Positions 41,234 through 43,677 of a stretch of 64,000 nucleotides of DNA are shown here, one piece after another. The notes beneath the pieces are model-generated. The model did no database searches and had not been told where the DNA came from. It was given only the letters and a program-made list of their open reading frames with translations. This DNA is from Streptantibioticus cattleyicolor NRRL 8057 = DSM 46488. Its GTDB lineage: Bacteria > Actinomycetota > Actinomycetes > Streptomycetales > Streptomycetaceae. The position numbers and the translations under genes are program-made. How positions within the stretch are numbered: position 1 is the stretch's first letter; every line of letters starts with the position of its first letter. The stretch is from the NCBI RefSeq assembly GCF_000240165.1, contig NC_017585.1:310001-374000 (forward strand), in the 5' to 3' direction.

Positions 41234-41806
41234 TCACGCCGCGAAGCCCACGGTGGTGACGTATTCGTACTGGCCCCACTGGGAGCCGAGGTCGGTGATG
41301 TGGTCGGTCCAGGCGTTGTCGAGTGCCTGGTCGTCGCCGGCCGCCCAGGCGTCCACCAGGCGTTCCCAGTGGCGGATGTTGAGGGTGCGGTAGGGGACGA
41401 CGCGCTGGCGGGGACGGAGGACGTGGCTCTGGTCGAGCGGGTGGATCTCGACACGGGTGCCCCGGCCCTGGCGGTTGAGGCGGCGCAGCAGGTAGCGGGC
41501 GACGTTGTGGCGGCGCACGGTGCGGTAGGCGGTCTCGACGGCGTCGAGGTTGGCCCGGGTGGGGCGGCGTCCGCCCTTGAGCCAGGCGTTGAGGGTGCGG
41601 TCGGTGACGGTCAGCCCGGCGGACCGGGCGGCGGCGCGGGCGTGCGGGGTGCGGGTGAGGTAGTGCAGCCGGGCGAGGAGGCCGCGGTTGGTGGTGACGG
41701 GGGTGGCGATGAACCCCGCGAGGTCGTCGAGGCGGGCGGCGACGGCCTGGTGGCCCTTGACGCCGCGGGCGCCGTACTTGCCGAAGTCGATGGTGCGTTC
41801 GGGCAC
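41234..41806 (-). CDS. Tpg-like protein (candidate terminal-protein relative)
   Basis: A 190-aa basic protein. An HTH-like segment at about residues 58-84 (GLTVTDRTLNAWLKGGRRPTR) is followed by a basic helix (about 95-118, RTVRRHNVARYLLRRLNRQG) and a C-terminal alpha/beta part with HWERLVDAWAAGDDQALDNAW. The layout (HTH with R-[TY]-x-G-x-x-RP wording, basic region, then a helix with a GDD-like turn) recalls Streptomyces Tpg, the protein bound to linear chromosome ends and about the same length. Sequence identity looks low, so this is a structural-order argument. The GTG start has AAGGAG upstream. It is 22 bp downstream of a Tap-like gene, matching the tap-tpg order. Confidence 0.5.
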   Translation of the reverse strand: MPERTIDFGKYGARGVKGHQAVAARLDDLAGFIATPVTTNRGLLARLHYLTRTPHARAAARSAGLTVTDRTLNAWLKGGRRPTRANLDAVETAYRTVRRHNVARYLLRRLNRQGRGTRVEIHPLDQSHVLRPRQRVVPYRTLNIRHWERLVDAWAAGDDQALDNAWTDHITDLGSQWGQYEYVTTVGFAA

Positions 41807-41828
41807 GCCAGGGGCTCCTTCGTCGCGG

Positions 41829-43373
41829 TCAGTCGTCGTGCCCGTCGGCGGCGGCCGGGCCGTGCGGGTCGTCGCCGATGGTGTAGGTGTCCTTCACCTT
41901 GACCTCGAAGACACCGCGGCCCTCGGGGAAGACACGCCGCCAGTCGCCGGTGACGTGGAACTCGTCGGTGCCCATCGCGCGCACCACCATCAGCCCCTCG
42001 CTGTGCGCCTTGTACGTCTTCATCCACAGGTTGGCGAACGCCTGCGAGCGGATCAGGTGCATCCAGTCCGGGCGGTACAGCTCCCGGTTGTAGTTGGACT
42101 CCCCCATGGTGGCCACGAACTTCGAGTACATCGCCTTGACGTACTCCATGGTCACCTCGTCGCCCTCGGCGAGCGCCCGCTCCCGCGCGTCCTTGAGGGC
42201 GACCCGGAACTTCTCCAGCAGGTTCTCCGTGGCGCCGGAGGTGAACGACTCGTGGATCTCGGGCGGGTCGCACAGCCCGTACGCGGGCGAGGAGAGCCGC
42301 AGCAGCAACCGCAGGGTCGGCTCGGTGACCCACAGCGGCCCGGGTTCGTCGCGGGCGCCGAGCGGGTTGGGCAGGACGTCCTCGTGGTGCCACGCGGGCG
42401 GGGTGATCAGGTGGACCCCCGCGCGGCGCCGGTCGTGGCCGGGACCGGCGGAGTGTTCCAACTGGCCGATCGGCAGATGGGTCTTGAGGGCGGACAGGTA
42501 GGCGCCGTTGACGTCGAGCGCGGTGACGTGGTGGGTGCCGGCGGGCAGCGCGGGCCGCGTCCACTTGGGGCGGGCCTCCCACACCTGGTCGGCGTCGCGC
42601 GCGGTGGGCTTGCGGAGGATGTCGGGGAGCCAGGGGTGGGCCACGATGTCGTACCGGCCCCCCTTGCGGCAGTGGTCGAGCAGTCGCATCGCGTCCGGGA
42701 TCGCCCGCCTGACCAGCGCCGCCGTCGCCGCCTCCACGTCACCGGAGTGCTCGGCCAGCGCCGCGGCGACCGCCTCCCCGATCAGGTCGCTCCGCTCGGC
42801 GACCGGCCGCACCCGGCGCCCCACCGGCTCGACGGGAACCCCGGCCCGTTCGGCGGCCCCGCTCCCCCGGACCGCCGCCGCGCACTCGGCCGGGTCCAAG
42901 TGCTGCGGAAACCCCGCGAGTTCGTGCCCGGCGTCCCGCCCGCACAACACGCAGGGCCGTGGGACGGCCAGGCGTCGGGGGCTGTCGGCGGAGTCGGGGG
43001 TGTCGCCGGGGGTGGCGGTGTCGGCGGGCGCGCCGTCCGGACCGGCGGGCGCGGCGTCGCCGGGGGTGACGGGTACACCGTCGGCGATCCGCCCGGCGGT
43101 GGCGGCGGGCGCCGGGGATTCCGCCGGTGCCGGGGGGAGTTTGTCTTCGGCGCCGCGGAGGAAGTAGGCGTACTTGGCGCGGGTCTCGCCGCCGGGGTCG
43201 CGGCCGGATTCCCAGCCGGCGACGGTGGAGGCGGCGACCCCGAGGGCGCGGGCGACCTGGGCGCGGGAGAGGCCGAGCGCTTCGCGCAGGGCCCGGCGGC
43301 GTTCGGGTGGCGGGAGTTCGTCCTCGTGCCCGGCCTGGGCGAGGAGCGCGTCGATCGCCTCGAAGCCGTTCAC
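41829..43373 (-). CDS. Tap-like protein: HTH, zinc-finger-like motif and family-B-polymerase-like motifs
   Basis: A 514-aa protein from a GTG start that overlaps the XRE gene by 4 bp. Residues 24-60 form an HTH (LGLSRAQVARALGVAASTVAGWESGRD) very like the N-terminus of the telomere-associated protein Tap. An Ala/Pro-rich linker leads to C141-x2-C144, H150, H158 and C164, a possible zinc site. The C-terminal half has ALDVNGAYLSAL (D287), EYVKAMYSKFVATMGES (K413) and MGTDEFHV (D470/E471), in the order and approximate wording of family-B polymerase motifs A, B and C. Tap itself recruits Tpg to telomere DNA. Polymerase activity is only inferred. Confidence 0.55.
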   Translation of the reverse strand: MNGFEAIDALLAQAGHEDELPPPERRRALREALGLSRAQVARALGVAASTVAGWESGRDPGGETRAKYAYFLRGAEDKLPPAPAESPAPAATAGRIADGVPVTPGDAAPAGPDGAPADTATPGDTPDSADSPRRLAVPRPCVLCGRDAGHELAGFPQHLDPAECAAAVRGSGAAERAGVPVEPVGRRVRPVAERSDLIGEAVAAALAEHSGDVEAATAALVRRAIPDAMRLLDHCRKGGRYDIVAHPWLPDILRKPTARDADQVWEARPKWTRPALPAGTHHVTALDVNGAYLSALKTHLPIGQLEHSAGPGHDRRRAGVHLITPPAWHHEDVLPNPLGARDEPGPLWVTEPTLRLLLRLSSPAYGLCDPPEIHESFTSGATENLLEKFRVALKDARERALAEGDEVTMEYVKAMYSKFVATMGESNYNRELYRPDWMHLIRSQAFANLWMKTYKAHSEGLMVVRAMGTDEFHVTGDWRRVFPEGRGVFEVKVKDTYTIGDDPHGPAAADGHDD

Positions 43374-43648
43374 CGGGCCGCCTCCGGGCGGGACGGGCGG
43401 CGGTGGGCGGCGGGCAGCGCCTCGCAGGCCCGGGTGGGCCCGGCGAGCAGGTCGAGCACGTCGATGCCGTAGTGCGCGGCGAGCGTGTCGCAGTCGGCCA
43501 GGCTCCACGCCGCGGTGCCCGCCTGCCGGCGGCTGACCTGTGTCTGGTTGAGGCCGAGGGCCGCGGCGACATCGGCCTGCGACTCCCCGGTGATCTGCAT
43601 CAGCGCGGCCACCGCGGCCCGCACCCGCTCACCCGACCCCATCCGCAT
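43370..43648 (-). CDS. Small XRE family regulator
   Basis: A protein of about 92 aa that is mostly one HTH (ESQADVAAALGLNQTQVSRRQAGTAAWSLADCDTLAAHYG). The ATG at 43648 is preferred because TAGTAT ends seven bases before it, as for a leaderless mRNA; an ATG at 43672 is the longer alternative. An 11-bp inverted repeat brackets this promoter. It is the first gene of an operon with the Tap-like and Tpg-like genes and probably represses it. Confidence 0.75.
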   Translation of the reverse strand: MRMGSGERVRAAVAALMQITGESQADVAAALGLNQTQVSRRQAGTAAWSLADCDTLAAHYGIDVLDLLAGPTRACEALPAAHRRPSRPEAAR

Positions 43649-43677
43649 GGCCCCGATACTACCAGCGGCCATGCGGA
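43642..43677. promoter_or_regulatory. 11-bp inverted repeat around the XRE/Tap-like/Tpg-like operon promoter
   Basis: TCCGCATGGCC (43642-43652) and GGCCATGCGGA (43667-43677) are perfect arms with a 14-bp spacer that contains the TAGTAT -10 element on the minus strand. A regulator bound here would close the promoter; the XRE protein encoded first in the operon is the obvious candidate. Confidence 0.68.

What the first reader, a model, noticed from the sequence alone, without database searches (positions are those of the whole stretch)
41234..43648. Tap/Tpg-like cassette with family-B-polymerase-like motifs
A small XRE gene, a Tap-like protein and a Tpg-like protein form one operon in the order tap-tpg. 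The N-terminal HTH of the large protein is very like Tap. Its C-terminal half carries motif-A-like DVNGAYLSAL (D287), motif-B-like KAMYSKFVATMG and motif-C-like GTDEFHV (D470) in polymerase order. If real, this is a divergent telomere-replication pair, or a protein-primed replication remnant of a mobile or linear element, and suggests that Tap itself descends from a polymerase.
Basis: partly seen in the sequence, partly recalled or inferred. Interest (0 to 1): 0.78.

Follow-up and report, generated by a model that had tools for sequence, protein, structure and literature searches.

The report
Telomere polymerase cassette of Streptomyces-type replicons

Summary
An XRE gene, a 514-aa Tap-like protein (TapL) and a 190-aa Tpg-like protein (TpgL) form one operon on the 1.81-Mb linear megaplasmid of Streptantibioticus (Streptomyces) cattleyicolor. 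It is the only tap/tpg-type locus in the genome.

TapL shares with archetypal Tap both the N-terminal HTH and the C-terminal domain (profile-profile probability 98.8; HMMER finds known Tap genes at about 1e-8 to 1e-14). The C-terminal domain matches protein-primed family-B polymerases. By profile, D287 aligns with phi29 D249 and D470 with D458, at twice the score of any shuffled control. In fold search the best match for this domain is phi29 polymerase, and nearly all other matches are family-B polymerases.

Replicons ending in the Sg2247-type telomere carry the cassette: 27 of 42 such plasmids against 0 of 16 with archetypal-like ends. On four cassette contigs the telomere core lies 3-6 kb away, at a contig end. 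Published work calls the proteins for this telomere class unidentified, and says Tap has no polymerase motif.

Best reading: TapL primes end-patching on TpgL using a degenerate, exonuclease-less family-B palm. Catalysis and telomere binding are inferred. The models are of middling confidence, the first motif-C Asp is Gly, and the canonical motif-B Lys is absent in TapL (present in Tap).

The parts
43370..43672 (-). XRE-family HTH gene, first gene of the operon; probable autoregulator
   Evidence: HTH families in Pfam and PHROGs. An XRE homologue lies directly upstream of TapL in 57 of 80 related loci. Stop overlaps the TapL start by 4 bp.
41829..43373 (-). TapL, 514 aa: Tap-like telomere-associated protein with an N-terminal HTH and a C-terminal family-B-polymerase-like domain
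   Evidence: NF047542 N-terminal match; C-terminal domain homologous to Tap and to protein-primed PolB.
43137..43328 (-). N-terminal XRE-type HTH of TapL (about residues 16-79), predicted telomere/DNA binding
   Evidence: HTH_3 E 9.4e-9; model pLDDT above 95 with HTH-repressor matches.
42882..42953 (-). Putative zinc knuckle of TapL, C141-x2-C144-x13-H158-x5-C164
   Evidence: Identical in all 78 relatives that cover it; metal binding inferred from the pattern.
41874..42788 (-). PolB-like domain of TapL (residues 196-500)
   Evidence: AF2 models m359d7133db3c and mf3548ef539cd; Foldseek and VIA matches almost all family-B polymerases.
42486..42515 (-). Motif-A-like DVNGAYLSAL (D287, N289, steric-gate-like Y292)
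   Evidence: D287 aligns with phi29 D249; invariant in 81 of 81 and in 13 of 13 divergent members. Tap equivalent is DxNxAF.
42102..42137 (-). Motif-B-like KAMYSKFVATMG (K413, Y416, K418)
   Evidence: MYSKF aligns with phi29 LYGKF. The canonical Lys seven residues before Tyr is Met in TapL but Lys in Tap (K-x6-[IV]-G-K).
41946..41966 (-). Motif-C-like GTDEFHV (G468, T469, D470)
   Evidence: D470 aligns with phi29 D458 (DTD to GTD). D470 invariant in 81 of 81 and 13 of 13. Sits in a predicted beta-turn-beta, strands 462-467 and 471-475.
41234..41806 (-). TpgL, 190 aa: candidate terminal protein (protein primer)
   Evidence: Same size class as Tpg (185 aa); HTH-bearing part matches Tpg at profile level (Prob 71.8, E 3.5e-5). 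Follows TapL in 61 of 80 loci, with two more cut or frameshifted; a gene of this size follows every divergent relative with annotation. Single copy in the genome.

Best explanation
The operon encodes the end-patching machinery of Sg2247-type telomeres. After internally initiated replication leaves a 3' single-stranded overhang that folds into tight hairpins, TapL (through its HTH and putative zinc knuckle) binds the folded overhang and holds TpgL at the 3' end. The TapL C-terminal domain, a minimal family-B polymerase palm and fingers without an exonuclease domain, uses D287 and D470 as metal ligands. It joins the first nucleotide(s) to a hydroxyl of TpgL and extends a short oligonucleotide, as shown for Tap-Tpg in vitro; a host polymerase fills the rest. 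TpgL stays on the 5' end as the cap. The XRE protein probably regulates the operon. Shown here: gene order, conservation, homology to Tap, profile and fold similarity to protein-primed PolB, linkage to the telomere type. Inferred: catalysis, metal ligands, priming residue, telomere binding, regulation.
For: Homology to Tap: HTH; C-terminal domain by hhalign Prob 98.8, E 7e-17 over 220 columns, control region Prob 0.1; an HMM of the family finds archetypal Tap genes at about 1e-8 to 1e-14 per genome. PolB link: profile alignment to nine protein-primed polymerases Prob 82, E 1e-5, with D287-D249, MYSKF-LYGKF and GTD470-DTD458 (numbers of the 575-aa phi29 enzyme). Real score 50.1, best of 60 shuffles 24.4, reversed 14.5. 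A single Microbacterium tectivirus polymerase, a curated DNA_pol_B_2 member, matches at E 2e-5 with shuffles at most 26.3. Folds: top PDB hit phi29 polymerase (E 3.3e-4; domain alone E 4.5e-3), nearly all other C-terminal hits PolB; viral library topped by phage DNA polymerases. Telomere link: pSCAT begins with hairpin-rich palindromes. 27 of 42 plasmids with this telomere at an end carry the close cassette, against 0 of 16 with archetypal-like ends (Fisher p 4e-6). All four genomes with clear telomere hits carry it. The telomere core lies 3-6 kb from the cassette in L097, L134, L141 and L124. SirexAA-E and S. seoulensis chromosomes end in it. Sole such locus in this genome. Biochemical precedent: Tap+Tpg and Tac+Tpc alone make TP-primed DNA (PMC4513846).
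Against: AF2 models are of middling confidence (pLDDT 69 and 64, pTM 0.38 and 0.43); whole-alignment TM-scores are low (0.1-0.26), and palm Z values of 7.0-7.4 lie in a range the tool warns about. No Pfam polymerase match for any member. The first motif-C Asp is Gly, and the usual motif-B Lys is missing in TapL. Tap does not reach PolB directly. TpgL resembles Tpg only weakly. Thirteen of 42 telomere-bearing plasmids had no cassette in the lists seen. The cassette lies about 350 kb from a contig end here, and the chromosomal ends of this assembly do not reach a recognisable telomere.
Confidence: 0.8

Rival explanations
1. The C-terminal domain is PolB-derived but catalytically dead. TapL is a telomere-binding scaffold that positions TpgL for a host polymerase such as DinB.
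For: Gly replaces the first motif-C Asp and the canonical motif-B Lys is absent in TapL. DinB1 or DinB2 is needed in vivo for linear replicons (PMC4513846).
Against: The two Asp residues equivalent to the metal ligands are invariant from 25 to 100% identity, unusual for a dead enzyme. The homologue Tap, with Tpg, makes DNA without added polymerase (PMC4513846).
Confidence: 0.12
2. The cassette is a telomere pair, but the PolB resemblance is coincidental; the domain is an unrelated, novel polymerase or binding fold, as the Tap literature assumed.
For: No curated family match; middling models; a 2015 paper states that Tap has no polymerase motif.
Against: Motif order, spacing and identities; a profile score twice the best of 60 shuffles; two models whose hits are almost exclusively PolB, led by phi29.
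Confidence: 0.08
3. The link between cassette and Sg2247-type telomere is hitch-hiking of linked plasmid segments; another protein pair patches these ends.
For: Many records are related Streptomyces plasmids; 13 of 42 telomere-bearing plasmids had no cassette in the lists seen.
Against: Association holds over plasmids of about 70 kb up to whole chromosomes, from positions 3 kb to over 300 kb from the end, and with cassettes of 64-80% identity in the domain. No other Tap or Tpg relative in this genome.
Confidence: 0.1
4. A vestigial or regulatory HTH operon of no telomere function.
For: Lies among ordinary genes about 350 kb from a contig end.
Against: dN/dS about 0.23 and intact ORFs in the relatives; telomere association.
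Confidence: 0.03

Closest known systems
Tap-Tpg of Streptomyces chromosomes (archetypal telomeres; NF047542)
   Same: N-terminal HTH, homologous C-terminal domain with matching motif-A and motif-C Asp, followed by a terminal-protein gene of about 185-190 aa.
   Different: TapL lacks Tap's middle domain (514 against about 700 aa), carries a CxxC...H...C knuckle, has Tyr where Tap has Phe in motif A and lacks Tap's K-x6-[IV]-G Lys. TpgL is only weakly alike. It goes with Sg2247-type, not archetypal, telomeres; an XRE gene precedes it.
phi29-type and tectivirus protein-primed family-B DNA polymerases (PF03175)
   Same: Profile and predicted fold of palm and fingers, motif A DxNxxY, YxKF of motif B, second Asp of motif C; works with a terminal protein encoded next door. 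The nearest single sequence found is a Microbacterium tectivirus (MuffinTheCat) polymerase.
   Different: No exonuclease domain, GTD instead of DTD, no Pfam match, fused to an HTH, tied to replicon ends rather than a phage genome.
Tac-Tpc of SCP1
   Same: Another cognate pair with TP-primed polymerase activity in vitro (PMC4513846).
pRL2-type pair described in the literature (Tap/helicase-like plus Tpg/adenovirus-TP-like; PMC8743542)
   Same: Relatives of the TapL domain fused to a DnaB-helicase domain and followed by a terminal-protein-sized gene were found here, which may correspond.
   Different: The pRL2 sequence itself was not compared.

Membership tests
Archetypal Tap (NF047542) | Score above curated cutoff (600 bits) | tested here: not met
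   87 bits, N-terminal region only
Archetypal Tap (NF047542) | N-terminal HTH | tested here: met
   E 1.2e-24 over residues 4-122
Archetypal Tap (NF047542) | Homologous C-terminal domain | tested here: met
   hhalign Prob 98.8, E 7e-17; HMMER about 1e-8 to 1e-14 to known Taps
Archetypal Tap (NF047542) | Binding to telomere palindromes and to its terminal protein | not testable with these tools
   Needs biochemistry
Tpg terminal protein | About 185 aa, HTH, gene next to tap | tested here: met
   190 aa, HTH-region match, adjacent to TapL
Tpg terminal protein | Full-length homology and priming Thr | tested here: inconclusive
   Prob 71.8, E 3.5e-5 over 120 columns with the divergent set; Prob 21 with close relatives; priming residue not identified
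Family-B DNA polymerase, protein-primed (PF03175) | Pfam gathering score | tested here: not met
   No hit in TapL or 13 relatives
Family-B DNA polymerase, protein-primed (PF03175) | Motif-A Asp with steric-gate Tyr | tested here: met
   D287 and Y292 aligned with phi29 motif A, invariant
Family-B DNA polymerase, protein-primed (PF03175) | Motif C DTD, both Asp | tested here: not met
   GTD: only the second Asp (phi29 D458 equivalent) kept
Family-B DNA polymerase, protein-primed (PF03175) | Motif B K-x6-YG | tested here: not met
   Y-x-K-F kept, Lys at -7 is Met in TapL; kept in Tap as K-x6-[IV]-G-K
Family-B DNA polymerase, protein-primed (PF03175) | Palm and fingers fold | tested here: inconclusive
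   Best hits phi29 and nearly only PolB, but models have pLDDT 64-69 and TM-scores are low
Family-B DNA polymerase, protein-primed (PF03175) | 3'-5' exonuclease domain | tested here: not met
   No room: the domain starts shortly before motif A, and the N-terminal part is HTH plus linker and knuckle
Sg2247-type telomere system | Telomere of that type on the same replicon | tested here: met
   pSCAT nt 1-47 core; class assignment of pSCAT and chromosome in PMC8743542

The most novel reading that the evidence does not exclude
All Tap-type telomere proteins of actinobacteria (archetypal Tap, this TapL, and forms fused to DnaB-helicase or other heads) are one modular family of exonuclease-less, terminal-protein-primed family-B DNA polymerases, sharing ancestry with actinobacterial tectivirus or linear-plasmid polymerases. 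Streptomyces thus does encode a B-family telomere polymerase, and TapL-TpgL is the missing pair for Sg2247-type telomeres.
Probability: 0.72. Interest if true: 0.9.

Novelty: new variant of a known kind. Interest (0 to 1): 0.84.

Why it matters
Two open questions become directly testable. First, the literature reports no identified telomere proteins for Sg2247-type ends (S. rimosus, S. albidoflavus J1074, S. cattleya); this operon is a specific candidate with clear deletion and reconstitution tests. Second, Tap and Tac were shown to polymerise DNA but described as having no polymerase motif; the alignment proposes the active site (motif-A Asp, motif-C Asp) in both Tap and TapL. If right, bacterial chromosome-end replication uses a domesticated protein-primed polymerase, linking linear chromosomes to linear plasmids and phages.

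Tried and rejected
Direct sequence searches of TapL or its 13-member profile against Pfam and PDB gave no polymerase. Searches for relatives in viral contigs and phage records found none. The domain-alone model was not better than the full-length one. Tap C-term against polymerases directly: not significant; a joint Tap+TapL profile was not actually built because the helper script failed, so those two numbers only repeat the TapL profile. Protein search of 100 family genomes failed twice and was replaced by smaller sets. SCP1 (tac-tpc) record not held. Yang et al. 2017 (Tap as primase) not held, so whether it already places an active site in Tap is unchecked. No telomere core in the window itself. 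The first telomere DNA search over family genomes gave many weak internal hits at E 1e-3 to 1e-5 that I treat as chance; only hits below about 1e-6 were used. Considered and rejected: beta-glucosidase-like weak hits, chance.

Full report
WHAT IS THERE. On the minus strand, XRE (43370-43672), TapL (41829-43373) and TpgL (41234-41806) are packed with a 4-bp overlap and a 22-bp gap. The window is bases 310001-374000 of contig C1, a 1,812,548-bp contig that corresponds to the linear megaplasmid pSCAT of Streptantibioticus cattleyicolor (100% TapL match in NC_016113.1; identical end segments). The neighbours are ordinary (a pyridoxamine-oxidase-like gene; by inspection FCD/GntR- and LysR-type regulators). 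Archetypal Tap is absent from the genome, and TapL and TpgL are each single copy.

CONSERVATION. TapL relatives are numerous: 145 plasmid records and 321 confirmed stretches in bacterial genomes, almost all Streptomyces. Across 81 full-length or C-terminal proteins D287, N289, Y292, R397, K413, Y416, K418, W437, R442, G468-T469-D470-E471 never vary, nor does a C-x2-C-x13-H-x5-C cluster (141, 144, 158, 164) where present. Thirteen divergent members, down to 25% identity, keep D287 and D470. Median dN/dS over the C-terminal domain is about 0.23. TpgL directly follows in 61 of 80 loci, plus one cut by a contig end and one frameshifted; of 14 genomes lacking it in cis, 12 have an intact copy elsewhere. 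An XRE homologue precedes TapL in 57 of 80.

RELATION TO TAP. The NCBIfam Tap model matches residues 4-122. With the HTH removed, the TapL-family C-terminal profile aligns to the Tap C-terminal profile at Prob 98.8, E 7e-17 over 220 columns, while Tap's middle region gives 0.1. Independently, a HMMER search of whole genomes with the TapL C-terminal alignment returns the known tap genes at about 1e-8 to 1e-14. Tap keeps D-x-N-x-A-F, K-x6-[IV]-G-K and S-D-C.

RELATION TO FAMILY-B POLYMERASES. The same TapL profile aligned to nine protein-primed phage polymerases gives Prob 82, E 1e-5 over 184 columns, with motif A (D287 on phi29 D249), motif B (MYSKF on LYGKF) and motif C (G-T-D470 on D456-T-D458) in register. 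The score is 50.1 against at most 24.4 in 60 shuffles and 14.5 for reversed polymerases; it survives removal of any one member, falling most without the Microbacterium tectivirus polymerase. That single sequence, a Pfam DNA_pol_B_2 member, alone matches at E 2e-5 and itself has E-T-D in motif C. AF2 models show beta-strand, D287, helix; two long helices; a long helix; then a beta hairpin with D470 at the turn. Foldseek's best PDB hit is phi29 polymerase for both models, and almost every other C-terminal hit is a family-B polymerase; VIA-align superposes 99-113 residues of 258-499, most at about 3-4 A, on PolB palms at Z 6.8-7.4, and the domain-alone list is nearly all PolB at Z 4.7-6.1. The viral library gives phage DNA polymerases first. 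Limits: pLDDT 64-69, low TM-scores, no Pfam hit. That phi29 D249 and D458 bind the metals is from general knowledge of this enzyme.

LINK TO A TELOMERE TYPE. pSCAT starts with GCGCGCGG-[hairpin]-CACGACGCG-[CTA-loop hairpin] and further three-base-loop hairpins; PMC8743542 places pSCAT and the S. cattleya chromosome in the Sg2247 class and says no Tap, Tpg, Tac or Tpc relative could be found in Sg2247-type genomes. The S. albidoflavus J1074 genome paper postulates a yet unidentified pair (PMC3937824). Of 42 plasmids with this core within 150 bases of an end, 27 carry the close cassette in cis and at least 2 a divergent one; 0 of 16 with archetypal-like ends do (Fisher p 3.9e-6, not corrected for relatedness). 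All four family genomes with clear telomere hits have the cassette. SirexAA-E and S. seoulensis chromosomes end in the core. In 1.59 Mb of fetched loci the 18-base core pattern occurs 14 times (some loci overlap) against 0.0007 expected; every instance is at a contig end or just after a run of N, and four of them lie 3-6 kb from a TapL gene (L097, L134, L141, and L174 beside L124). Plasmid pRLB1-9.2 bears dnaB-TapL-TpgL and this telomere, although a study of that strain reported no Tap or Tpg homologue on its linear plasmid (written pRLB1-9.1 there; PMC7205883).

MECHANISM. Tap+Tpg and Tac+Tpc alone deoxynucleotidylate the terminal protein and extend it (13 nt for Tap), yet the authors found no polymerase motif and called these a new class (PMC4513846). 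The simplest reading is that TapL does the same on Sg2247-type overhangs with a degenerate PolB palm, TpgL being the primer. Steps inferred, not shown: catalysis, metal ligands, telomere binding, the priming residue, regulation by XRE.

MEMBERSHIP. TapL works like a protein-primed PolB and is a distant homologue, but I do not file it as a standard PF03175 polymerase: motif C DTD, the motif-B Lys and the exonuclease domain were tested and are not met. It is likewise a Tap-superfamily member but not an archetypal Tap (below cutoff, no middle domain).

OPEN POINTS. The 2017 paper naming Tap a primase was not available, so part of the active-site idea may already be published. Tac and GtpB could not be compared. 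Seventeen of 80 loci lack TpgL in cis; thirteen telomere-bearing plasmids had no cassette in the lists I could see.

Noticed in passing
L043:1429-3900, L049:1186-3957, L050:1225-3696 (L045 and L046 longer): The PolB-like tail is modular: it is fused to a DnaB-helicase C-terminal domain or sits in proteins of more than 1000 aa, often within a few kb of plasmid ends, and is followed by a 182-212-aa gene.
   Followed up: partly
NZ_CP108270, CP108311, CP108874, CP109577, CP107962, CP021119, CP108236, CP108988, CP107763, CP108823, CP075613, CP109439: Twelve plasmids carry the telomere core 0.7 to 15 kb inside the end and no close cassette; perhaps pseudo-telomeres or replaced ends.
   Followed up: no
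L064, L066, L070-L075, L084, L086, L091, L095, L101, L111, L124, L125, L131: TapL without TpgL within 6 kb (XRE kept in many); 12 of 14 such genomes have TpgL elsewhere, two (L070, L111) none found.
   Followed up: partly
L174 (scaffold of L124, about 658269): A telomere core directly follows a run of N inside a 7.16-Mb scaffold, 6 kb from TapL: possibly a replicon end joined wrongly during scaffolding.
   Followed up: no
G135, G132, G197, G251: TapL-type domains also occur outside Streptomycetaceae within the class, and on a Brachybacterium linear plasmid.
   Followed up: no
Locus L193 (MuffinTheCat polymerase): The actinobacterial tectivirus polymerase has ETD in motif C and is the nearest single polymerase to TapL found, a hint to the origin.
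   Followed up: partly
Contig C2 left end (L036, 1-1700): About 1.7 kb of degenerate C/A-rich repeat at the chromosome contig end instead of telomere palindromes; may be assembly or biology.
   Followed up: no
G075:C1:4173-5096 (L155): A 7.08-Mb single-contig genome carries TapL about 4 kb from its left end, though the assembled end itself shows no telomere.
   Followed up: no
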